The notes under the pieces were generated by a model. The model searched no databases. It was not told where the DNA came from and saw only the letters and a list, made by a program, of their open reading frames with translations. This document shows positions 448 through 13,434 of a stretch of 16,036 nt of DNA, piece by piece. The translations under genes and the position numbers were made by a program. The number at the start of each line of letters is the position of its first letter. Positions within the stretch are counted from its first letter, which is position 1. Source of the stretch: an uncultured Bacilli bacterium (GTDB lineage: Bacteria > Bacillota_I > Bacilli_A > RF39 > UBA660); NCBI GenBank assembly GCA_944359595.1, contig CALVSV010000016.1, positions 1-16,036 on the forward strand, written 5' to 3'.

Positions 448-1851
448 TTACATAGAATAATCATAATAACTTGAGTAATCATTATTGTAATAATAATCAT
501 AATTATCATAACTATTTGAATAACTGTTGTTATAACTATTTGAATAGCTATTGTTATAACTATTAGTAATTGATTCGAATGGAGTGCCTAACAAAGCTGT
601 ATTTAAATTGTTGTAAAGTTCAGTATAAAATGAATCTGATAATGTATTATAATCAACAGCATTTGAAGTATCGAATATTTCTAGATTATCTACATACTCT
701 TCAGTTACATTATTTGTTATTTCAATAGATTCTTTTTCGCCATTGTTATTAACATTTATTTGTATAATCATTTTGCTTGTAGACTTATCATTTGATTCCT
801 TAGTTGTTTCTATATTTATGCTACCACCTATAATTTCTTCTGAATTTACTGTATAACTATATGCGATTTCAACTTTATCATCGCTATTTTTTATGTTAAT
901 AGAAATTACATTAGTTGAAATAGAATATATTATATTGTAGACATTATCTTTTACTGTCATACTCATATTATTATCACTATTATTATTATCAACTAATTCA
1001 TATTTTACAACTTTATTTCCCTTGGTATATAAATTGATTATTAATGCATTAGAATTAGTTGGTGTATATTCTTCGTTTAATATTGTTTTAAGTTCATCTT
1101 CACTTACACCAGACATTTTTGCAACAATTGACATAGCTTTAGTATCATTTAAAATTGCCGATTTCATATTGCTTACAATTTTTTGTATTTTTTCTTGATT
1201 ATAAATATAGCTCATCTTATATACGTTTGTATCTTTACCATCTAAATTAATTTTTACTTTTTCTTTTGTAAAATCATTATCTGCAAAAGAATTAATAATT
1301 GAATCTTTTAGTATTTTTAATATATAATCAAAGTCTTCATCAGATATTTCTGTTTCAGCTTGTAGGAAATCATTAAACGTTGCTTCATTATTCATCAGTA
1401 TTTCTTCAAACAATGTATTTGATTTTAAATACATAGCCTTATCATCAATTAACGAACTAATATCAATTACATCTTTTTGAGTATCATTAAGCACACCTTC
1501 TAATAATGCTTTTTTATTTTTATAATCCATACCAATCTTGTACTTTAGTTTATAATTATTAAATTGACTTATATCAGCAAGATTTGAATTAATTGACATT
1601 TCACCACTATACATTACAGGTTCATTTAAATATCTTGTATCACCATCAATTGTTAAACTTCTACTTTTTTCATATAAAGTGTTAATTGTATTTATAAAAT
1701 ATGTTTTGGGTCTTGCAAAAAACACATTAATCGCAACATATGCCATTAAGCTAATTACAAGTATAATTAATACGATGCATACAATTATTTTTGTCCCACT
1801 ACTTTTTTTCTTTGGGGTACTATCTAAAATAGTATCTAAATTATCGTTCAT
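448..1851 (-). CDS. Single-pass membrane protein with N/S/Y/D-only tail, function unknown
   Basis: I do not recognise the family. The 467 residues begin with a short cytoplasmic N-terminus bearing a Lys cluster (14-16), followed by one hydrophobic segment (about 21-46) that should act as a signal anchor. A large, polar, probably extracellular region (about 47-425) is rich in Asn, Ser, Asp, Lys and Ile and has alternating beta-like stretches. Residues 430-466 consist only of Asn, Ser, Tyr and Asp, with 13 tyrosines, and include two copies of an 8-residue NNSYSNSY repeat. The start is supported by GAGGAG seven bases before ATG. It has its own promoter (1920-1948) and terminator (365-402), so it is monocistronic. 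A cell-surface or wall-associated role is inferred from topology only. It is not necessarily related to the FtsEX operon upstream. Confidence 0.85.
   Translation of the reverse strand: MNDNLDTILDSTPKKKSSGTKIIVCIVLIILVISLMAYVAINVFFARPKTYFINTINTLYEKSRSLTIDGDTRYLNEPVMYSGEMSINSNLADISQFNNYKLKYKIGMDYKNKKALLEGVLNDTQKDVIDISSLIDDKAMYLKSNTLFEEILMNNEATFNDFLQAETEISDEDFDYILKILKDSIINSFADNDFTKEKVKINLDGKDTNVYKMSYIYNQEKIQKIVSNMKSAILNDTKAMSIVAKMSGVSEDELKTILNEEYTPTNSNALIINLYTKGNKVVKYELVDNNNSDNNMSMTVKDNVYNIIYSISTNVISINIKNSDDKVEIAYSYTVNSEEIIGGSINIETTKESNDKSTSKMIIQINVNNNGEKESIEITNNVTEEYVDNLEIFDTSNAVDYNTLSDSFYTELYNNLNTALLGTPFESITNSYNNSYSNSYNNSYSNSYDNYDYYYNNDYSSYYDYSM
510..564. repeat. 24-bp in-frame tandem repeat in a surface-protein tail
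   Basis: Two 24-bp units (510-533 and 534-557) differ at two positions. A 7-base start of a third unit follows at 558-564. On the minus strand each unit encodes eight residues of the NNSYSNSY type. Because the unit is a multiple of three, slippage would change tail length without shifting the frame. Confidence 0.8.
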
Positions 1852-2013: not shown

Positions 2014-3240
2014 TTAATATCTAGTAGTTCTATCATTAAAATATCTATAACTTCCAACTGGTGGAAAATTTACGAGAGTTCTAGGATCAAATGATTTATT
2101 TTGAACTTGTGAATATGAATTGTTCAATCCATTAGACATCATAAAATGTATATGTTGTCCAGTCGAACATTTATCCCATGGTGTATATCCGGGATTTCCA
2201 TATCGATTTCCACCAACAACCCCAAGCATTGTATCTTTAGTTACAGATTGACCAACGCTTACTGATACACTTTTCATATGTGCATACGCAGTTGTATAAT
2301 ATTTTCCACTTATATTATGTTGAATAATTACATAGTTTCCACCACAACTATTGGAATTGCTGTTTTCTACACCAACAACTTTACCTGCAGCTGATGCATA
2401 AACATATCTAGTGGATGATACACCAACTCCTATATCAGTTGCATAATGCATCTTTGTATATCCATATAATGCAATGTTTCTATATCCATATTCGCTAGAT
2501 ACATATCCATAATCAGTAGGTCTATAAAATACTGTATCATATGGTAATTGATTACTTAAGCAAGAAGTAATATCTTGTGAATCACTTTTACATATTTTAG
2601 AATAATAATTTACTGTTTCTTTTAATTGTTTAATTTCTACTTCTTTATCAACTTGAACTTCGGATATACTACTAAGAGATGCTCCATAAGATTCTATTTT
2701 CTTTTCATATTCCTTAATTTTTTCTTCTAATACTATTTGTTTTTTTTCTAACTCTTCTTGTAATTCTTTACTTTCTTCGACTGTTTCATTCATGTCATCT
2801 ATCAATTTATCATTATATTCACTTATCTCTTCAGCAATAGTCGTTCTATGTATAAGATCTGTCATACTTTCAGACCCAAATATATAATCTAAATATGCAA
2901 TATCACCATCAGTAAGTTGAACTGCCTTCATAAGTTCTTTAATTTGAGCTTGTTTTTCTTCAATCTCAACATTTAAATCTTGAATTTTTTGTCCAGCAGC
3001 TGTTATATCTTTTTGTGCTTGATCTATAGCTTGTTGAGAACTTTTAATCTCTTTATTAGAATAATCAATATTATTTTGAAGATTTTCTTTTTGATTTTGA
3101 TTTTCTTCATATTCTTTTTGTGCTTGTGCCAACTCATTTTTTAATTGTCCTAGTGTTTTGGCATGTGTTTTTGTTGGTATAAATGTAGTAGTTATACAAA
3201 TTATAAATACAAAAATTATTATTATAATTTTTTTATACAT
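2014..3240 (-). CDS. Secreted coiled-coil M23 (LytM-type) peptidoglycan endopeptidase, FtsEX partner
   Basis: A predicted zinc endopeptidase that cuts peptidoglycan cross-links outside the membrane. The 408 residues begin with a hydrophobic signal or anchor segment (about 4-22) ending near an AHA-type site. A long coiled coil follows (about 30-215), including YLDYIFGSESMTDLIHR (116-132), the motif shared by EnvC, PcsB and CwlO-type FtsEX partners. The M23 domain spans about 245-390. All family active-site residues are visible: H265 and D269 of HxxxD, H321, and H363 and H365 of HIH. The enzyme should therefore be active, unlike the degenerate M23 domain of E. coli EnvC. Four cysteines (217, 227, 299, 358) lie in the exported part. 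The ATG overlaps the ftsX stop codon (TAATG), so it is translationally coupled to ftsX, which strongly supports control by FtsEX. A terminator follows. Confidence 0.9.
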   Translation of the reverse strand: MYKKIIIIIFVFIICITTTFIPTKTHAKTLGQLKNELAQAQKEYEENQNQKENLQNNIDYSNKEIKSSQQAIDQAQKDITAAGQKIQDLNVEIEEKQAQIKELMKAVQLTDGDIAYLDYIFGSESMTDLIHRTTIAEEISEYNDKLIDDMNETVEESKELQEELEKKQIVLEEKIKEYEKKIESYGASLSSISEVQVDKEVEIKQLKETVNYYSKICKSDSQDITSCLSNQLPYDTVFYRPTDYGYVSSEYGYRNIALYGYTKMHYATDIGVGVSSTRYVYASAAGKVVGVENSNSNSCGGNYVIIQHNISGKYYTTAYAHMKSVSVSVGQSVTKDTMLGVVGGNRYGNPGYTPWDKCSTGQHIHFMMSNGLNNSYSQVQNKSFDPRTLVNFPPVGSYRYFNDRTTRY

Positions 3241-4139
3241 TATATTTTCAAATACTTTCTAACAGCTCTATAACTACCAATCATACCAACACACACTCCT
3301 ATAAGTATTAATACGCCACAAACACTATAAACATATGGAAATGGTTTCATTAATTTAAATATTGGCGTAAATAAATGACCATCAAAATATTTATATAAAG
3401 AATTATATCCATATATAGTTATTATTATTGGAATTATTGAACCAATAAGTCCTAATATAAATCCTTCAACAACAAATGGAAATCTAATTGTCGTATTACT
3501 TGCTCCTACCAATCTCATTATTTCAATTTCTCTTTTTCTTGAAAAAATTGTAAGTTTAATAGTATTGGCAATTAAAAATGCAGTAACAACTATTAATCCA
3601 GCAACGATTATTATCATTCCATTTTGTATACCTTTAAATATAGTAACCATTTTTTCAACCATACCTTCACCGTATTTTACTTCTTCTATCGAAGGCATTT
3701 TTTCTATTTGTTTTGCTGTATCATTTATTTTTTCTATATCAATAACTTTTACAAACAATTCATTATGAAGTGGATTGTTATCATCACTCCAAGTACTAAC
3801 AATATTTTCATATGTTTTACTTTCTTTAGCTAACTCTTCCTTTTTATCTTGCTTAGTAATAATTTCTACACTTTCAATATTTTCCATTTTTTTTACTTCA
3901 TTTGCCAAAGATTTTAATTCATCATAAGTTAAATCACTATCTACAAATGAAACAATAGTAACGTCATCTTCAATTGCAGTTGTTGCTTTATTAACATTGG
4001 TTGTTAACATAATAGATATTGACACAAGAATTAATGTAACAATAATACATGAAATCGATGCAATACTTAAACTAAAGTTTCTGAATACACTTTTAAATGC
4101 ATCTCTAATATACCTTGGCAACATTCTAAATGCTTTCAT
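3240..4139 (-). CDS. ftsX: FtsX, membrane subunit of the FtsEX cell-division complex
   Basis: FtsX is the membrane half of an ABC-type complex that, in known systems, transmits FtsE ATPase activity to an extracellular peptidoglycan hydrolase rather than moving a substrate. The 299 residues show the family layout. There is a cytoplasmic N-terminus with RYIRDAFKSVFRN (9-21), TM1 at about 22-46, and an extracellular domain at about 47-170 that should bind the hydrolase coiled coil. TM2 is at about 173-195, the diagnostic loop RKREIEIMRLVGAS at 201-214, and TM3 and TM4 at about 222-246 and 271-290. The length is normal. The ATG follows AAGGGA with 9 bases between. It overlaps the 3' end of ftsE by 14 bases, and its stop overlaps the peptidase start, so the three genes are tightly coupled. 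Confidence 0.96.
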   Translation of the reverse strand: MKAFRMLPRYIRDAFKSVFRNFSLSIASISCIIVTLILVSISIMLTTNVNKATTAIEDDVTIVSFVDSDLTYDELKSLANEVKKMENIESVEIITKQDKKEELAKESKTYENIVSTWSDDNNPLHNELFVKVIDIEKINDTAKQIEKMPSIEEVKYGEGMVEKMVTIFKGIQNGMIIIVAGLIVVTAFLIANTIKLTIFSRKREIEIMRLVGASNTTIRFPFVVEGFILGLIGSIIPIIITIYGYNSLYKYFDGHLFTPIFKLMKPFPYVYSVCGVLILIGVCVGMIGSYRAVRKYLKI

Positions 4140-4830
4140 TTTTAAACGTCCCTTCTATATAATCTTTAACTATGTGTCCTTTATCTATATAAATAACCCT
4201 TTTCTTCATCTTTTCGACTATTTCGCGATCATGTGTAGCCATAACTATTGTAGTACCTAGTTTTCGATTTACATTATTCAAAACTTTCATAATTTCTAAA
4301 CTTGTTTTAGGATCTAAATTACCCGTTGGTTCATCACAAATTAATATTTTTGGATCGTTTACTATTGCACGAGCAATAACTACTCTTTGTTGTTCACCAC
4401 CTGATAATTGATCAGGATACGACTTGACTTTTTCTTTTAAGCCAACTAACTTTAGTACTTTAATTACTCTATTTCTTATTTCAGATTTTTGCATACCAAT
4501 TACTTCTAAAGCAAATGCAACATTTTCATATACATTAAGTTTTGGTAATAACTTATAGTCTTGAAAAACAACACCTATTTTTCTTCTTAACTTATAAACT
4601 TTCCCATTACGAAGTTTTCCTACATTAATTCCTCCAACAATTATTTGTCCACTTGTTGGTTTTTCTTCTCTATACATCATTTTTATTAAAGTAGATTTAC
4701 CCGATCCTGAAGCACCAATAACAAAGACAAATTCGCCCTTATTAATACTTAAATTTATATTATATAAAGCAGTAACTCCATTTTTATACTGTTTTTCGAC
4801 ATTCATTGCGCGTATTATTTCCACGAACAT
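4126..4830 (-). CDS. ftsE: FtsE, ATPase subunit of the FtsEX cell-division complex
   Basis: Cytoplasmic ABC ATPase that drives conformational change in FtsX. Numbered from the chosen ATG (234 residues), it has Walker A GASGSGKS (39-46), Q-loop VFQD (88-91), signature LSGGEQQR (142-149), Walker B ILICDEP (162-168) and switch His200. The FtsE-typical NGVTALYNINLSINKGEFVFVIG precedes Walker A. The open frame reaches back to 4848, but that start lies upstream of the only good ribosome binding site (AAGGGA). That site suits the ATG at 4830 or the GTG at 4824, which would remove two more residues. A promoter at 4854-4882 would give a very short leader. First gene of the ftsE-ftsX-M23 operon, overlapping ftsX by 14 bases. 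Confidence 0.95.
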   Translation of the reverse strand: MFVEIIRAMNVEKQYKNGVTALYNINLSINKGEFVFVIGASGSGKSTLIKMMYREEKPTSGQIIVGGINVGKLRNGKVYKLRRKIGVVFQDYKLLPKLNVYENVAFALEVIGMQKSEIRNRVIKVLKLVGLKEKVKSYPDQLSGGEQQRVVIARAIVNDPKILICDEPTGNLDPKTSLEIMKVLNNVNRKLGTTIVMATHDREIVEKMKKRVIYIDKGHIVKDYIEGTFKNESI

Positions 4831-4853
4831 CACTTCCCTTTTGCTCACTTTCC

Positions 4854-4911: not shown

Positions 4912-5316
4912 TTATACACTATCAAAATACGTTATTCTTCTTTCCATTACATCATCTTCAATTAGATCTCTTAATAATTTTCTTACTTTCTCACAATTAT
5001 ATATATTTTTTAAATAGATTCTTTGTCCAGCTCTAGTACTATTACCCTTACTATCAACCATAACAGAAACAGTACCAATCTTTAATAATTTCTGATATAA
5101 GCTAATTGTCATATCTGGGTCTTTTAACATATATAATTCAACTGTATTAGTATTTTGTCTAAAAAATCCTTTTTTTATTATAAGTTCATCTTTTGTAATT
5201 TGGTACGTAGTAAAATTTAAATGTATTTTTGTTAAGAATCTTTGTATCAAACCAGAAGGCTTGCCTTCCCATTTTATTTCAAATTGAACATCATGAATAG
5301 TATTATTTTCAGCCAT
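4912..5316 (-). CDS. Small soluble protein of unrecognised family, possibly PH-like
   Basis: 134 residues from the chosen ATG. The frame also opens with GTG nine bases earlier (5325), but that GTG sits inside the apparent ribosome binding site GTGAGG, which is correctly spaced from the ATG at 5316. No signal peptide or transmembrane segment is visible. The protein is predicted to be mostly beta strands with a C-terminal helix (KVRKLLRDLIEDDVMERRI). The pattern of a strand, then ITKDELIIKKGFF followed by NTVELYMLKDPDM, recalls bacterial PH-like domains that begin with conversion to a standard frame of beta strands, but I cannot confirm this from sequence alone. It has its own promoter and lies between the rpoC terminator and ftsE, where rpsL would be found in many Bacilli. 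Function unknown. Confidence 0.8.
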   Translation of the reverse strand: MAENNTIHDVQFEIKWEGKPSGLIQRFLTKIHLNFTTYQITKDELIIKKGFFRQNTNTVELYMLKDPDMTISLYQKLLKIGTVSVMVDSKGNSTRAGQRIYLKNIYNCEKVRKLLRDLIEDDVMERRITYFDSV

Positions 5317-5347
5317 ATTTACCACCTCACTAAAAAATTATATTTTA

Positions 5348-5390: not shown

Positions 5391-5418
5391 AAAAAACAAA
5401 GTCTTAAATGACTTTGTT
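5391..5418 (-). terminator. Intrinsic terminator of the rpoBC operon
   Basis: A perfect 9-bp stem AACAAAGTC/GACTTTGTT (5395-5403 with 5410-5418) with a 6-base loop is followed on the minus strand by a continuing run of T. The hairpin begins inside the rpoC stop codon (5417-5419), so termination occurs with essentially no 3' untranslated region beyond the hairpin. Confidence 0.88.
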
Positions 5419-8400
5419 AATTTTCATCATCCACTATAGCGTGAATTTCATCTGTCTCATCATCAGCTAGCAAATTATTTTCTAAAACTTCGGCAGGATC
5501 ATCATCTGTAATATTTGTTGCTAAATGATAATTTATATTTTGATATTGTTTAGCACCAGTACCGGCAGGAATTAATTTACCAATAATTACGTTTTCCTTA
5601 AGTCCTTGTAAATAATCAACTTTACCACGGATAGCTGCATCAGTTAAAATTCTTGTTGTTTCTTGGAATGAAGCAGCAGATAAATATGAATCTGTTTCAA
5701 GACTTGCTTTAGTAATACCTAATAATATTGGTCGACCAATCGCTGGCTTTTTGCCTTGAACAATAACTTTCTTATTAGCTTCAGTAAATTCAGTAATTGA
5801 TATTAATGATCCAGGTAATATTTCTGTATCTCCACCATCACTTATTCTTATTTTAGAAATCATTCTTTTAGCGATAATTTCGATATGCTTATCACTTATA
5901 TCAACACCTTGTGAACGATATACTTTTTGTATTTCTTTTAAGATATATTCTTGTACAGTAATTGGATCTGTTACTGCAAGTAATTCCTTTGGATTAACTG
6001 AACCTTCTGTAAGACTTTCACCTGCACTAACAATATCACCTTTAGAAACTTTTAATTTAGCTCCATAATTCGTAGTATGTTCACGTGTTTCAACATCGTT
6101 TTTAATATATATTTTAAACTTGCTATTAACTTCTTCGATTTTACTAATTTTACCATCAATTTCAGCAATAGTTGCTTTACTTTTTGGGTTTCTTGCTTCG
6201 AATAACTCTTGAACACGTGGAAGACCTTGTGTAATATCGTCTCCAGCAACTCCTCCAGTATGGAATGTACGCATAGTAAGTTGTGTACCAGGTTCACCGA
6301 TTGATTGTGCAGCCATAATTCCTACTGCTTCTCCAACTTCTACAAGTAATCCTGTTGCTAAATTTTTACCATAACAATGTTTACATAAACCATTATGTGT
6401 TTTACAAGTTAACGCAGTTCTTATTTCGACTGATTTAATTCCAGCATTAACTATTTTTTCAGCAATATTTTCAGTTATATACTCATTCTTATCAATAATT
6501 GTTTCTTTTGTTTCAGGATTAATTACTTTTTTATTAGTAAATCGTCCAACAATTCTGTCATATAAACTTTCGATTACGGTATTTGCTTTTTCATCAATGA
6601 ATTCACTTACTACTTGCCCTTGAATTGTTCCACAATCTTCTTCTTTAATAATTACATCTTGTGCAACATCAACTAAACGTCTAGTTAAGTATCCAGAGTC
6701 TGCTGTTCTTAATGCAGTGTCGGCACTACCTTTTCTTGCACCGTGAGTAGATAAGAAGAATTCTGATACTGATAACCCTTCTCTAAATGATGATTTAACA
6801 GGAATTTCTACAGGTTGTCCATTTGGTTTTTGCATTAATCCTCTCATACCAGCTAATTGAGTAAAGTTTGAAATGTTACCACGAGCCTTAGAGTTCATCA
6901 TCATAAATATTGGATTATCAACGTTTGATGGATCTTTAGCAATTTCTTCAAGTTCATCAGAAACAATTTTCTTTGCATCGTTCCATGTAGCAATTACTTT
7001 ATTAAATCTTTCGTCTTCAGTTATTAAACCTCTTTGATATTGCTTATTTATTTTATTTACCATTGTATTACCGTCTTCAATAACTTGTTTTTTCTTTTTA
7101 CTACTTACAATATCTGTTACTGCAATAGATACACCAGCTTTTGTTGAATATTTAAAACCTTGATCTTTTAATTTATCAAGCATTACAGATGTTTCAGTAG
7201 TTTTATATCTTTTATATATTTGAGCAATAATGTCTTCAAGTGTTGATTTAATAAATGGTTTTACAATTGGCATTTTAGCAATTTCTTCTGGTATATTAGC
7301 GCCTTTTTCTATAAAGAATTTATTTGGCGTAACTCTTTCAATATTTTCAGCACTAGGTTCATTTATATATGCAAATGAATCAGGTAAAATTTCATTAAAT
7401 ATTAGTTTACCAGCAGTAGTTACAAGATATTTACCTTTTTGTGAATCAATAAACACTTTATGTTTAAATGAATTAACTGGTAACGCTATACGAGCATGCA
7501 GTGATATTTCACGTCTTTCGTATGCCATAATAGCTTCGTTTGTATCTTTAAATATTCTACCTTCACCAGGAAGACCCGGCTTTTCAATACTTAAATAATA
7601 ATTACCAAGTATCATATCTTGTGTAGGTGTAACAATCGGTTTTCCATCTTTAGGATTAAGAATATTATTTGAACCAAGCATAAGCAATCTAGCTTCAGCT
7701 TGTGCCTCATTTGATAAAGGCACGTGTACAGCCATTTGATCTCCATCAAAGTCTGCATTAAATCCAGGTGTTATTAAAGGATGAAGCCTTATAGCTTTAC
7801 CACCAATTAAAACAGGTTCAAAAGCTTGAATACCTAATCTATGTAATGTAGGAGCACGGTTTAATAATACAGGATGCTCTTTAATTACTTCTTCAACAAT
7901 ATTCCATACTTTTTCATCTTTATTTTCTATCATTTTTTTTGCTGTTTTAATATTTGTAGCTATCTCTTTTGAAACTAATCCATTAATTACATGTGGTTTA
8001 AACAATTCTAATGCCATATCTTTAGGAATACCACATTGATACATTTTTAATGATGGACCAACAACAATTACACTACGACCAGAATAATCTACACGTTTAC
8101 CAAGTAAATTTTGTCTAAATCTTCCTTGTTTACCTTTTAACATACTAGATAATGATTTTAATGGTCTGTTTCCAGCACCAGTAACGTTTCTACCACGTCT
8201 TCCATTATCAAACAATGCATCCACTGCTTCTTGTAGCATACGTTTTTCGTTTTGGATAATTATTGATGGTGCACCTAATTCTATTAATCTTTTTAATCTA
8301 TTATTTCTATTTATTATTCGTCTATATAAATCATTTAAATCACTAGTAGCAAATCTTCCACCATCTAATTGAATCATTGGTCTAAGTTCTGGAGGTATAA

Positions 8401-9097
8401 CGGGAAGAACGTCTAAAATCATCCATTCAGGTTTATTACCAGATTGATAAAAAGCATCAAGTACATCAAGACGTTTAGTTAGTCTAATTCTTTTTTGCCC
8501 TTGTGAATCTTTTAATTCTTCTCTTATTTCGTCTAGTTCTTTTTTTACGTCAACTTCTTGCAACAATTTTTTTATTGCTTCAGCACCCATTCCAACTTCA
8601 AAACCATTGCCATATTTTTCATAGTAAGCTCTATATTCTTTATCTGATAATGTTTGTTTTTTTTCTAACGGTGCATTACCAGGATTAATTACTACATATG
8701 AAACAAAGTATAGCACTTCCTCTAAATCACGAGGTGACATATCAAGTACTAATCCCATACGTGATGGAACACCTTTAAAATACCAAATATGAGATACAGG
8801 AGTAGCAAGTTCAATGTGACCCATTCTCTCACGTCTTACTTTAGATTTTGTAACTTCAACCCCACATCTATCGCATACTATTCCTTTATATCTTAATTTT
8901 TTGTATTTTCCACAAGCACATTCAAAATCTCTTGTAGGTCCAAATATTTTTTCACAAAATAACCCATCACGTTCTGGTCTTAATGTTCTATAGTTTATAG
9001 TTTCTGGTTTTTTTACTTCTCCATATGACCAACTACGTATATCTTCAGGAGATGCAAGAGAGATTTTTAATGCTTCAAAATTATTAACACCTATCAT
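5417..9097 (-). CDS. rpoC: DNA-directed RNA polymerase subunit beta'
   Basis: Catalytic clamp subunit of RNA polymerase, 1226 residues, close to the usual Bacilli length. Visible landmarks in order: N-terminal zinc site C60, C62, C75, C78; the active-site motif [16 protein letters not shown] (447-462), whose D449, D451 and D453 bind the catalytic Mg; the bridge helix region [21 protein letters not shown] (about 787-807); the second zinc site C822, C898, C905, C908; and the trigger loop [18 protein letters not shown] (932-949). The C-terminus ends in an acidic stretch. The ATG overlaps the rpoB stop codon (TAATG), with GGGAG inside the end of rpoB as ribosome binding site, so the two largest subunits are translationally coupled. 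A terminator hairpin starts at the stop codon. No large lineage-specific insertion is obvious. Confidence 0.99.
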
Positions 9098-12000
9098 TAA
9101 AAATCACTCCCTTCTATATCTATATCACTATCATCAAATTCTTCATCATCATCATCAACATATTCTTCATCGCTATCAATATCTTCATTATCATCTAAAT
9201 CTTTATCTTTTTTATTTTCAATAGCGATTCTATCAATTAATGCTAACTTTTCTTTTAATTCGGAATCATCCATATCATCCATTGTTAGTGATGAATCATC
9301 ATTATCCTCTATTTCTTCTAATTGTTTTAATCCAATTTCTATATTATTATCATTAATTATTGACATATTTAAGCCTAACGCTTGAAATTCTTTGATCAAC
9401 ACTCTAAATGATTCTGGAATTCCGGCTTGTTCTACTGTATGTCCTTTAACAATTGATTCATATACTTTTACACGCCCAACTACATCATCTGATTTTACAG
9501 TCATCATTTCTTGTAGTGTATGTGCTGCACCATAAGCATATAAAGCCCAAACTTCCATTTCACCAAATCTTTGACCACCAAATTGTGCTTTACCACCTAA
9601 TGGTTGTTGTGTTACTAATGAATATGGTCCAGTAGAACGTCCATGTAATTTATCATCAACCATGTGTGCAAGTTTTATCATGTACATTACCCCAACACTT
9701 ATTCTATTATCAAATGGTTCACCAGTTCTACCATCATACAATACTGTTTTATAGTCATCATCAATTCCTGCTTCTTTCATCATCTTGTCTATATCGTCAG
9801 TTTTTGCACCATCAAATACAGGAGTAGCAACATAACAATTTAATTTTTTAGCAGCCATACCTAAATGTAATTCCAAAATTTGTCCAATATTCATACGAGA
9901 TGGAACACCTTGAGGATTTAGCATAATATCAACTGGAGTACCATCTGGTAAATATGGCATATCTTCTTCTGGTAATATTAAAGATATAACCCCTTTATTA
10001 CCGTGACGTCCACTCATTTTATCCCCAACTTGTATCTTTCTTTTTTGTACTATATAAACTCTTACGACTTTTGATACACCAGCAGGCAGTTCGTCGTTAT
10101 CTTTTCTTGTATAAACTTTTACGTCATGAACTATACCATCACCACCATGTGGCACACGTAAAGATGTATCTCTTACCTCACGAGTTTTTTCACCAAATAT
10201 AGCATGCAATAATTTTTCTTCGCTAGTTAATTCACTCATTCCTTTAGGTGTTACTTTACCAACTAATATATCACCTTCATGGACTTCAGTACCAATTCTT
10301 ACAATACCTTCTGAGTCTAAATTGCGTCTAGCATCTTCCCCAATATTTGGTATATCACGAGTAATTTCTTCAGGACCTAATTTTGTTTCACGACATTGTG
10401 TTTCATAATCTTCAATGTGTATTGATGTATATACATCATCTTTAACTAATCTTTCGTTCATTATTACTGCATCTTCATAGTTGTAACCATTAAATGTCAT
10501 AAATGCAACTACAACGTTTTTACCTAGTGCTAATTCACCTTTGTCAGTACTAGGTCCATCTGCAATTGTTTCTCCGCGTTTTACTTTGTCGCCAACTTTT
10601 ACAAATGGTCTTTGATGATAACATGTGCCTTGGTTTGACCCTTCAAATGTAGTTAAATAATATGTATCTTTCCCCTTAGCATTTTTAATAACAATTTTTC
10701 TACCATCAACGTACTCAACAATACCATCAGCTTTTGCAACAACTACAGCACCAGAATCTTTAGCTGCTATATATTCAACACCTGTACCAACAAATGGCGC
10801 TTCAGTTTTAAGTAGAGGAACTGCTTGACGTTGCATGTTAGCACCCATTAAAGCACGAGTTGCATCATCATGTTCTAGAAATGGTATACAACTTGTTGTA
10901 ATAGATACAACTTGTTGTGGTGAGACATCAATATAATCAATTTTATCTTTATTTATCATTATATTTTCTTCCATATAACGAGCTGTAACTACTTCGTCAA
11001 GTATCTTTTTATTTTTAATATTTATTGTTGCTTGTGAAATATAAAAATCTTTTTCTTCGTCTGCAGTTAAGTAATCAACTTGATCAGTTATTATACCATT
11101 TTCAACTTTACGATATGGTGTCATAATAAATCCATATTCATCAATTTTAGCATAACTTGCTAAAGATGTAATTAACCCGATATTTGGTCCTTCTGGTGAT
11201 TCAATCGGACAAATTCTACCATAATGGCTAGAGTTAACGTCACGAACTTCCATACCAGCTCTATCTCTTGATAACCCGCCAGGTCCTAGAGCAGATAAAC
11301 GTCTTTTGTTAGTAAGTTCTGCAATTGGATTTTGTTGATCCATAAATTGAGACAATTGACTACTACCAAAAAATTCTTTTATTGCAGCAGTAACAGGACG
11401 TATATTTATAAGTGTTTTAGGAGTAATAGTATCTATTTCTTGTGTTGTCATTCTTTCTCTAATTACTCTTTCCATACGCGCTATACCAATTCTAAATTGA
11501 TTTTGTAATAGCTCACCAACTTGTCTAACTCTTCTGTTACCTAAATGATCTATTTCGTCAGTATGTCCAATGCCATCTAATAAATTTAAATAATATGAAG
11601 TAGCTGCATAAAAATCTGATATAGTCAATCTTTTAATTGTTAATGATGGATCATTACCAATAATAGATGTAACTTTTTCTTTATTATAAGGCATAAATAC
11701 TTTAATTTCTTGCACAATATTGTATTCATCTAAATCATGATTAATTAAAACTTCGTGTGTACCATATCCACTATTCAAAATAGGTTTAATTTTTTCAAGA
11801 ATATCTTTAGTTATTAGTGTACCACTTTCAACTACAACTTCACCATCTACAATAATATCTTCTGCAATTATATTGTTAAGAAGTCTATCACAAACGCCTA
11901 ATTTTTTATTGAATTTATATCTACCAACTTTAGCTAAATCGTATCTAAATTCATCAAAGAATCTAGTAATTAATTGGTTTTTTGAACTATCTAAAGTTGC

Positions 12001-12735
12001 AGGTTCTCCTGGTCTTAGCTTTTCATATATTTCAATTAATGCTTCGTCAGTATTTTGCGAAGTATCTTTATTTAATGTATTTAATATATATTTGTTATCT
12101 TTAAATACATTTTCAATTTCTTCAGATGAAGATAAACCAAATGCACGCAAAAGTGTAGTTAAAGGCACTTTTCTAGTTCTATCAATTCGCACATATATTA
12201 CATCTCTAGCATCTATTTCAAACTCTAACCATGTACCACGTGTAGGGATTATTTGAGAAGTATACACAGTACGCCCATTTTTATCCATTTCTTTTGAATA
12301 ATAAACACTAGGTGAACGAACTAATTGGGATACAATTACTCTTTCTGCACCATTTATAATAAATGTTCCCGCATCAGTCATAATAGGCATTTCACCTAAA
12401 AATATTTCTTGTTCTTTAACTTCTCCGGTTTCATTATTGTATAAACGCGCTTGTACTTTTAAAGGTGCTGCATATGTAGTTTCTCTATATTTTGCCTCTT
12501 TTATTGTGTATCTAGGTTCATCAAATTGATATGAAACAAAGTCTAATCTGATTCCTCCAGAATTATTTTCTATAGGAAACAAATCTTTAAATACTTCATC
12601 AATACCATTAGTTAAGAACTCTTGATATGATTTTTTTTGAATTTCAAGCAAATCTTGAAGTTCATAAGTGTTTTCAATACTTGAGAAATTTCTTCTTTCT
12701 CTATGATTATTAATTTTTTTAATTTTATATGCCAC
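9097..12735 (-). CDS. rpoB: DNA-directed RNA polymerase subunit beta
   Basis: Beta subunit, 1212 residues. It starts with GTG (12733-12735), preceded by AGGGGTG six bases upstream. The rifampicin pocket is clear at about 457-500: [14 protein letters not shown] (457-470) followed by the [13 protein letters not shown] stretch (475-487). Residue 476, equivalent to E. coli His526, is Asn (codon AAC at 11308-11310). The Gln513, Asp516 and Ser531 equivalents (Q463, D466, S481) are kept. The [12 protein letters not shown] motif (904-915) and the C-terminal [19 protein letters not shown] region (1047-1065) are standard. After the conserved C-terminal end at about 1140 there is an extra acidic tail: 23 of the last 42 residues are Asp or Glu. 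It is driven by a promoter inside the end of the preceding methyltransferase gene and coupled to rpoC by a TAATG overlap. Confidence 0.99.
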
Positions 12736-12818: not shown

Positions 12819-12847
12819 ATATTATCAGAGATATTTCAATTTGTCAA
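12819..12847 (-). promoter_or_regulatory. Promoter of rpoBC, overlapping the upstream stop codon
   Basis: On the minus strand a perfect TTGACA (12842-12847) and TAATAT (12819-12824) are separated by 17 bp, with TGA before the -10. The -35 hexamer contains the TGA stop codon of the methyltransferase gene (12844-12846). Transcription would begin near 12812, leaving a leader of about 75 bases before the rpoB GTG. No strong regulatory fold is seen in that leader. Confidence 0.75.
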
Positions 12848-13434
12848 TTATTTTTCAAACTAATTACAAAAAAATCATGTTTTTTTTCTATTATAGAAAC
12901 AAGATAATATTTACTCATGTCTTTTATTAATGTTTTAGCGCCTTGATGTTTATTAATAACTATAATAAGTTCTCCGTTCTCTCTTAAATAATTTTTGGCA
13001 GTAATTAATATATTATATAAATTATTTTTCCCAATTCTTATTGGAGGATTAGATATTATATAATCATATTTTTTATTTATTTTTTCGTATGCATCGCTTA
13101 AAAAGACGTATGCATTACATACTTTATTTAATTCGATATTTTCTTTCGCTAATTTTATTGCACGTTCGTTAATATCTACCATGTCTATTTTCGCATCGCA
13201 ATTTTTAGCAATAACTATACCAATAGTACCATAACCACAACCCATGTCTAGCACGTTTCCGCTAATGTTTTCAAAATTTAATGACGATAACAACACAGTT
13301 GTCCCTATATCTATATTGTCTTTTGAAAATACACCATTATCAGTCATAAATTTATATTCTTTGTTATTTAATTTAAATTTTATTATTTTTTCATTGCTTT
13401 TAAGTTTTGTATTATTTGTAAAATAATGTTGCAT
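12844..13434 (-). CDS. ybxB: Class I SAM-dependent methyltransferase, YbxB/RsmC-like
   Basis: Predicted S-adenosylmethionine-dependent methyltransferase of 196 residues, in the rplL-rpoB position where Bacillus has ybxB. The family resembles the catalytic half of RsmC, which methylates a guanine N2 in 16S rRNA. The true substrate of the Gram-positive members is less certain. Motif I VLDMGCGYGTIG (61-72) is the cofactor-binding glycine loop. The acidic residue after strand 2 is D87, D114 follows, and motif IV is NPPIRIG (129-135), the NPP type seen in enzymes acting on exocyclic amino groups of bases. The start has GAAAGG seven bases upstream. It is separated from rplL by a hairpin, and its stop codon TGA is part of the rpoB -35 box. 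It is the only gene in the window ending in TGA. Confidence 0.88.
   Translation of the reverse strand: MQHYFTNNTKLKSNEKIIKFKLNNKEYKFMTDNGVFSKDNIDIGTTVLLSSLNFENISGNVLDMGCGYGTIGIVIAKNCDAKIDMVDINERAIKLAKENIELNKVCNAYVFLSDAYEKINKKYDYIISNPPIRIGKNNLYNILITAKNYLRENGELIIVINKHQGAKTLIKDMSKYYLVSIIEKKHDFFVISLKNN

What the first reader, a model, noticed from the sequence alone, without database searches (positions are those of the whole stretch)
11308..11310. RpoB carries Asn at the E. coli His526 position: predicted natural rifampicin insusceptibility
The rifampicin pocket is otherwise wild type (Q463, D466 and S481 match E. coli Q513, D516 and S531), but residue 476, between LT and KRR, is Asn encoded by AAC. 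Asn at this position is the natural change linked to rifampicin insusceptibility in Spiroplasma and other Mollicutes, and substitutions of His526 are classic resistance mutations elsewhere. Here it occurs in an organism that appears to have a cell wall, since it encodes FtsEX and an active M23 hydrolase. This suggests the trait is older or broader than the wall-less lineages.
Basis: partly seen in the sequence, partly recalled or inferred. Interest (0 to 1): 0.7.

Follow-up and report, generated by a model that had tools for sequence, protein, structure and literature searches.

The report
Rifampicin-site asparagine in gut-lineage polymerase
An uncultured bacterium from a gut lineage, probably with a cell wall, naturally carries an amino acid in the rifampicin-binding site of its RNA polymerase that makes E. 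coli resistant, and its relatives show several other natural changes in the same drug pocket.

Summary
In detail: RpoB residue 476 (E. coli 526) is Asn, AAC, window 11308-11310. It is no error: 39 of 65 genomes read in the window's family carry Asn. The genome has four transpeptidase domains and an MraY signature, so a wall is likely. Published 526N is high-level resistant in E. coli, "disputed" in M. tuberculosis, and already noted in Tenericutes. This is a walled-lineage member of a known kind; insusceptibility is predicted, not shown. Of 192 genomes of the class read, 32 keep Q513/D516/H526/S531. Izemoplasma-like families replace Asp516, with Asp at 522 in 15 of 15 genomes and 160 of 160 listed proteins lacking Asp516, a candidate reason for a published "surprising" rifampicin enrichment of an Izemoplasma relative. 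Against: an RF39 variant fell under rifaximin in rats, and I521 sits at a position where E. coli mutations raise sensitivity.

The parts
9097..12735 (-). rpoB, RNA polymerase beta subunit, 1212 aa, GTG start; the only match of PF04565 in the genome
11308..11310 (-). Asn476 codon AAC (E. coli His526)
11347..11349 (-). Gln463 (E. coli Gln513), consensus here; Lys in the linked K513/D526 sister genera
11338..11340 (-). Asp466 (E. coli Asp516), consensus here; Ala/Gln/Ser in Izemoplasma-like families
11293..11295 (-). Ser481 (E. coli Ser531), consensus here; Thr in families f4 and f15 (TGA = Trp)
11275..11370 (-). rifampicin-site stretch [32 protein letters not shown] (E. coli 506-537)
11197..11199 (-). 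Ser513 (E. coli Thr563), second rifampicin cluster; Ser in 142 of 145 rows of the family set with a letter there
5417..9097 (-). rpoC, beta prime subunit, directly downstream
4126..4848 (-). FtsE-like ABC ATPase (wall context)
   Evidence: (ABC_tran) and position beside FtsX
3240..4139 (-). FtsX (wall context)
   Evidence: FtsX_ECD and FtsX
2014..3240 (-). PcsB-type peptidoglycan hydrolase with M23 domain (wall context)
   Evidence: CC_PcsB and Peptidase_M23

Best explanation
The Asn is a natural, lineage-level variant of the rifampicin pocket in RpoB of a probably walled gut lineage of Bacilli (RF39-like; the name RF39 is my recall for relatives of Ca. Onthousia/Scybalousia). Asn lacks the imidazole of His526 that contacts rifamycins (recalled from published structures), so drug binding should be weakened while the polymerase stays functional; the organism is predicted to be less susceptible to rifampicin and rifaximin by target structure, without an acquired resistance gene. 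Shown: the residue, its occurrence in close relatives, wall genes, no match to the rifampin ADP-ribosyltransferase family in this genome, and recurrent remodelling of the same pocket in the class. Inferred: weaker drug binding and higher MIC in this organism.
For: Residue and context. 39 of 65 genomes of the family read have Asn; 66 of the 80 nearest database loci have Asn. E. coli saturation mutagenesis: 526N high-level Rif resistance, nearly every substitution at 526 resistant, and 526N noted in Tenericutes including Mycoplasma (PMC10550828, passages and section 9 read). Reviews state that mycoplasmas are intrinsically resistant through rpoB (PMC8532757 and PMC10892753, one passage each). 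No Arr family match in the genome (genome 92% complete; other inactivating enzymes not searched). In the class, 160 of 192 genomes read lack the consensus Q513/D516/H526/S531.
Against: No phenotype for this lineage. H445N (=H526N) in M. tuberculosis is graded disputed and low-level (PMC12844990, passages). The window has Ile at 521; E. coli mutations at L521 raise rifampicin sensitivity (PMC10550828, passage), though that passage does not name L521I. In healthy rats one RF39 sequence variant was among those reduced with rifaximin (PMC12491630, passage); its RpoB genotype is unknown. His-bearing sister clades show that the residue is not indispensable. The Mollicutes whose resistance is reviewed mostly carry Thr531 as well (33 of the 34 Asn526 genomes of f4, f15 and f23 read), which the window lacks, so Asn may not act alone there.
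Confidence: 0.68

Rival explanations
1. The variant is tolerated or selected for polymerase properties (faster elongation, termination behaviour, nucleotide use) and any drug insusceptibility is a by-product; the residue moves between His, Asn, Asp and Gln because the helix 523-527 tolerates change.
For: E. coli 526N has fast-polymerase character and helix 523-527 is highly mutable (PMC10550828). At least 15 changes at this position on the 279-row RpoB tree. The window DNA is 24-32% GC, so a C-to-A change of the His codon fits its composition (inference).
Against: Some changes come as tightly linked pairs (K513 with D526; non-Asp516 with D522), which looks like constraint rather than free drift. 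It does not exclude the best explanation; it is about cause.
Confidence: 0.4
2. Asn526 here gives little or no real drug insusceptibility because the local context (I521, A522, L524, Q518) restores binding; the organism is rifamycin-sensitive in practice.
For: M. tuberculosis H445N is low-level and disputed. L521 is a sensitising position in E. coli. One RF39 variant was reduced with rifaximin in rats. The TGA = Trp genomes with Asn526 read here also have Thr531 in 33 of 34 cases, so Mollicute resistance may not rest on Asn alone.
Against: E. coli 526N alone is high-level resistant.
Confidence: 0.27
3. Asn526 was inherited once from an ancestor shared with wall-less Mollicutes, and the His, Gln and Asp states in the class are later changes.
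For: Asn is the commonest state read (114 of 192), present in 11 of the 23 families read, and favoured by one step as the ancestral state of the window's family (and hand count).
Against: Deep RpoB nodes are weak or misplaced (Bacillus falls inside the class when rooted on E. coli); Mollicute Asn mostly comes with Thr531, the window's does not; on that tree some Asn appear as separate gains (one Turicibacter-like genome, three f16 genomes, f8), some on weakly supported nodes.
Confidence: 0.3
4. Sequencing or binning error.
For: The genome is a fragmented assembly (166 contigs).
Against: Separate genomes at 84-87% identity carry the same residue with another codon.
Confidence: 0.01

Closest known systems
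Intrinsic rifampicin insusceptibility of Mollicutes (Asn526 RpoB; Mycoplasma, and by recall Spiroplasma)
   Same: Asn at E. coli position 526 in the native rpoB
   Different: The TGA = Trp families read here have Thr531 as well (f4 26 of 26, f15 9 of 9; the single f23 genome has Ser531); the window has Ser531, wall genes, and genes open without TGA = Trp
526N in the E. coli rifampicin-site mutant collection (PMC10550828)
   Same: same residue change; resistance measured there
   Different: laboratory single mutant in a pocket with L521, S522, I524; here I521, A522, L524
M. tuberculosis rpoB H445N
   Same: same residue change
   Different: clinical mutation graded disputed and low-level (PMC12844990); here the natural state of the lineage
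Rifamycin resistance by drug-modifying enzymes (Arr and others)
   Same: would give the same phenotype
   Different: no Arr-family match in this genome; other modifying enzymes not searched

Membership tests
Mollicute-type intrinsic rifampicin-insusceptible RpoB | Asn at E. coli position 526 in the only rpoB match of the genome | tested here: met
Mollicute-type intrinsic rifampicin-insusceptible RpoB | Thr531 beside Asn526, as in 33 of 36 genomes of f4, f15 and f23 read here (a feature seen here, not a published definition) | tested here: not met
   window has Ser531
Mollicute-type intrinsic rifampicin-insusceptible RpoB | polymerase or growth insensitive to rifampicin | not testable with these tools
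   no culture or assay; prediction from E. coli data only
Mollicutes (wall-less, TGA = Trp) | no peptidoglycan synthesis genes | tested here: not met
   4 PF00905 matches and one MraY signature in G000
Mollicutes (wall-less, TGA = Trp) | TGA read as Trp | tested here: not met
   indirect: rpoB (1212 aa) and rpoC (1226 aa) are full length under table 11, so hold no in-frame TGA
Resistance by rifampin ADP-ribosyltransferase (Arr) | Arr domain PF12120 | tested here: not met
   0 matches in G000; genome 92% complete

The most novel reading that the evidence does not exclude
Most of this class of Bacilli (window family, Haloplasma- and Izemoplasma-like lineages, Mollicutes) is intrinsically rifamycin-insensitive through at least four different natural solutions in one pocket: Asn or Gln at 526; Asn526 with Thr531; a linked Lys513-Asp526 pair; and loss of Asp516 paired with Asp at 522. 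The paired changes are compensatory charge moves that keep the polymerase working, gained and lost together, and they account for unexplained rifampicin tolerance in uncultured or newly cultured relatives.
Probability: 0.4. Interest if true: 0.62.

Novelty: new member of a known kind. Interest (0 to 1): 0.42.

Why it matters
If true, a large set of uncultured gut bacteria would ride through rifampicin and rifaximin treatment by inherited target structure, which a search for resistance genes would not flag. The window's family is a natural experiment: related genera with Asn, His, or Lys+Asp can be compared in existing rifaximin studies. The paired changes (513/526 and 516/522) give testable cases of epistasis inside one of the best-studied drug sites, and the 516/522 swap is a candidate reason why an Izemoplasma relative was unexpectedly enriched on 100 ug/mL rifampicin (PMC11129491, passages).

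Tried and rejected
Naming the rpoB of Thomasclavelia (Clostridium) ramosa: PMC13134403 reports high rifampicin and rifaximin resistance (MIC >256) in its T. ramosa strains with no mechanism found (passages and section 18). I hoped that the Asp516-changed families were its kin; the names returned by two protein searches (best 120 of about 8000 each) are Izemoplasma-like or broader (Mycoplasmatota, Tenericutes, Bacilli), and none is T. ramosa. The link stays a lead.

First extraction scripts missed some loci (mostly Mollicute) and misread L234; corrected. L245 and L278 were taken from the extraction, L253 and L280 by a looser motif. L041 (G036) could not be read. L039 was too short for the trees but is in the counts.

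55 of 247 genome handles were not read (18 f15, 11 f1, 5 f10, 5 f4, 3 f12 and 13 others): G017, G039, G080, G089, G136 and G146 had no match to the searched family, G036 could not be read, and I did not fetch the rest, mostly because another genome of the same genus was read. Of the 149 genomes of the class search, 122 were read. Family f1 and, through, f4 and f15 are over-represented, so the fractions are not class-wide frequencies. The phylum search drew only genomes of the same class. Second RpoB pieces in G021 (L037) and G006 (L038) were left out of the genome counts.

Rooting the whole tree on E. coli put Bacillus inside the class, so deep direction of change was not used. Papers searched for this claim: rpoB with RF39 and rifamp- gave 0 papers; rifampicin with Asn, 526 and Mollicutes gave 0; the open-access library only. 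PMC8397711 (Izemoplasma isolate) has no word beginning antibiotic-, rifamp- or ampicillin- in its main text.

Full report
Observation. The window is one whole contig (C16) of a 1.19 Mb, 166-contig assembly, 92% complete. rpoB lies at 9097-12735 on the minus strand. Codon 476, window 11308-11310, is AAC, Asn. The three alignments shown to solved polymerases place it opposite His in ELTHKRR, and alignment to E. coli K-12 RpoB places it at 526 with Q513, D516 and S531 conserved. The pocket is not entirely wild type: among 35 listed positions it also differs from E. coli at 518, 521, 522, 530 and 563, and from Bacillus methanolicus at 518, 521 and 563.

Who it is. The nearest database records are metagenome assemblies, many with animal-gut sample names, titled uncultured Bacilli, Bacillota or Tenericutes, with Candidatus Onthousia and Scybalousia among them; I recall these as GTDB order RF39, which no call confirms. 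The window's own sample is unknown. PMC7301438 (passages) reports mraY in 86.9% of RF39 genomes. Here the genome has 4 transpeptidase-domain matches and an MraY signature, and the window carries FtsX, an FtsE-like ATPase and a PcsB-type M23 hydrolase. All 8 genomes of the family tested have both PF00905 and MraY-signature matches.

Distribution. I read the site in 192 genomes of the class, of 247 handles. Position 526: Asn 114, His 47, Asp 18, Gln 11, Thr 1, Ser 1. In the window's family (f1), 65 genomes: Asn 39, Asp 18, His 8. Only 32 of 192 genomes have Q513, D516, H526 and S531 together. Sampling is uneven, so these are not population frequencies.

Walls and Asn526. Asn526 genomes with transpeptidase domains among the 33 tested: f1 genomes, f8 (Haloplasmataceae by a name), f13, f19, one f11 (Turicibacter-like) and one f16; Asn526 genomes without: f7, f18, f4, f15, f23 and one f16. 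The MraY signature was not found in the two f19 genomes, one of two f13 and one of two Asn526 f8 genomes, but that 13-residue profile also missed 2 of the 10 control genomes that have PF00905. So Asn526 and wall loss are not tied to each other. Haloplasma is reported to lack a wall in spite of peptidoglycan genes (PMC7301438, passage), so genes alone are not proof of a wall.

Linked pairs. Lys513 occurs with Asp526 in 18 of 18 genomes and in none of the other 174. On the careful family tree (78 family rows, 7 others), built without the site's own columns, the Lys-Asp rows form one clade (100/99) that contains one row, L124, back at Gln513 and Asn526; the nearest node has 75/17 and the next 99/96, and the AU test rejects the Asp rows as a clade of their own (p 0.024). 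So the pair was gained together once and probably lost together once. His526 in the family falls in two places, and one clade is rejected (p 0.006). These groups were named after a tree was seen, so the p values are optimistic. Asn as ancestral state of the family goes with 6 changes on this tree, His with 7 by my hand count: a one-step preference only.

A second pair lies outside the family. In f3, f12, f20 and f22, Asp516 is Ala, Gln or Ser and position 522 is Asp in 15 of 15 genomes; none of the other 177 genomes has Asp522. One f1 genome (L276) has Glu516 without Asp522, the single exception to the pairing. Protein searches name relatives of f12 and f3 as Ca. Izimaplasma HR1, Xianfuyuplasma, Izemoplasmatales or Mycoplasmatota; f20 and f22 join f12 on the tree. 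Among the 166 proteins first listed in those two searches, 160 lack Asp516 and all 160 have Asp522; the 6 with Asp516 do not. These overlap in part with genomes already counted. f10, f14 and f21 have Gln526 with position 535 changed (11 of 11). The TGA = Trp families f4 and f15 have Thr531 in 35 of 35 genomes, with Asn526 in 33 of them; the one f23 genome has Asn526 and Ser531.

Function. In E. coli, 526N gives high-level rifampicin resistance and fast-polymerase character, nearly every change at 516, 526 and 572 gives high-level resistance, and 526N was already noted in Tenericutes (PMC10550828, passages and section 9). In M. tuberculosis the same change is disputed and low-level, while the H526D and Q513K equivalents are high-level (PMC12844990, passages). 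So resistance is more secure for the K513/D526 and Asp516-changed relatives than for the window's own Asn526. Mycoplasmas are reviewed as intrinsically resistant through rpoB (PMC8532757, PMC10892753, one passage each).

Phenotypes in kin. For: an Izemoplasma relative was enriched (to 22%, not isolated) with 100 ug/mL rifampicin, which its authors called surprising (PMC11129491, passages); its own RpoB was not read. Against: an RF39 sequence variant was among those reduced with rifaximin in healthy rats (PMC12491630, passage); whether it carried Asn or His is unknown. T. ramosa (Erysipelotrichales by recall) has MIC >256 with no mechanism found, its rpoB having been mapped to its own species reference (PMC13134403, section 18 and passages); I could not retrieve its RpoB.

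Verdict. The feature is real and of a known kind (natural 526N). New here, as far as the searches show (listings, and the passages named above), are its presence as the commonest state in a probably walled gut family, its lability there, and the two linked pairs in relatives. The mechanism (loss of the His526 contact with the drug) is inferred from published mutants and structures as I recall them; no assay was possible.

Noticed in passing
L124 (G076:C1) against L133, L277 and other K513/D526 rows: One genome inside the Lys513/Asp526 clade is back at Gln513/Asn526 while keeping Ser532, an apparent joint reversal of both linked residues.
   Followed up: partly
families f3, f12, f20, f22 (for example L035, L209, L029, L225): Asp516 replaced by Ala, Gln or Ser, with Asp at 522 in all 15 genomes read (Izemoplasma-like lineages).
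   Followed up: yes
families f10, f14, f21 (for example L246, L250, L245) and f5, f16: Gln526 together with Thr, Val or Ser at E. coli Pro535; Pro535 is also replaced (Gln, Ala, Lys, Ser) in f5 and f16.
   Followed up: partly
L037 (G021:C14:17600-21604): A second, different RpoB-like piece (His526, KRK instead of KRR) in a genome whose main RpoB has Lys513/Asp526; may be a contaminant contig.
   Followed up: no
window 448-1851 (-): 467-aa protein with an N-terminal membrane segment and an Asn/Tyr/Ser-rich tail, no Pfam match, downstream of the PcsB-like gene.
   Followed up: no
window 12844-13434 (-): Small-domain methyltransferase (MTS, PF05175) gene between rplL and rpoB.
   Followed up: no
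window 4912-5325 (-): 137-aa bacterial PH-domain protein between rpoC and the FtsE-like gene.
   Followed up: no
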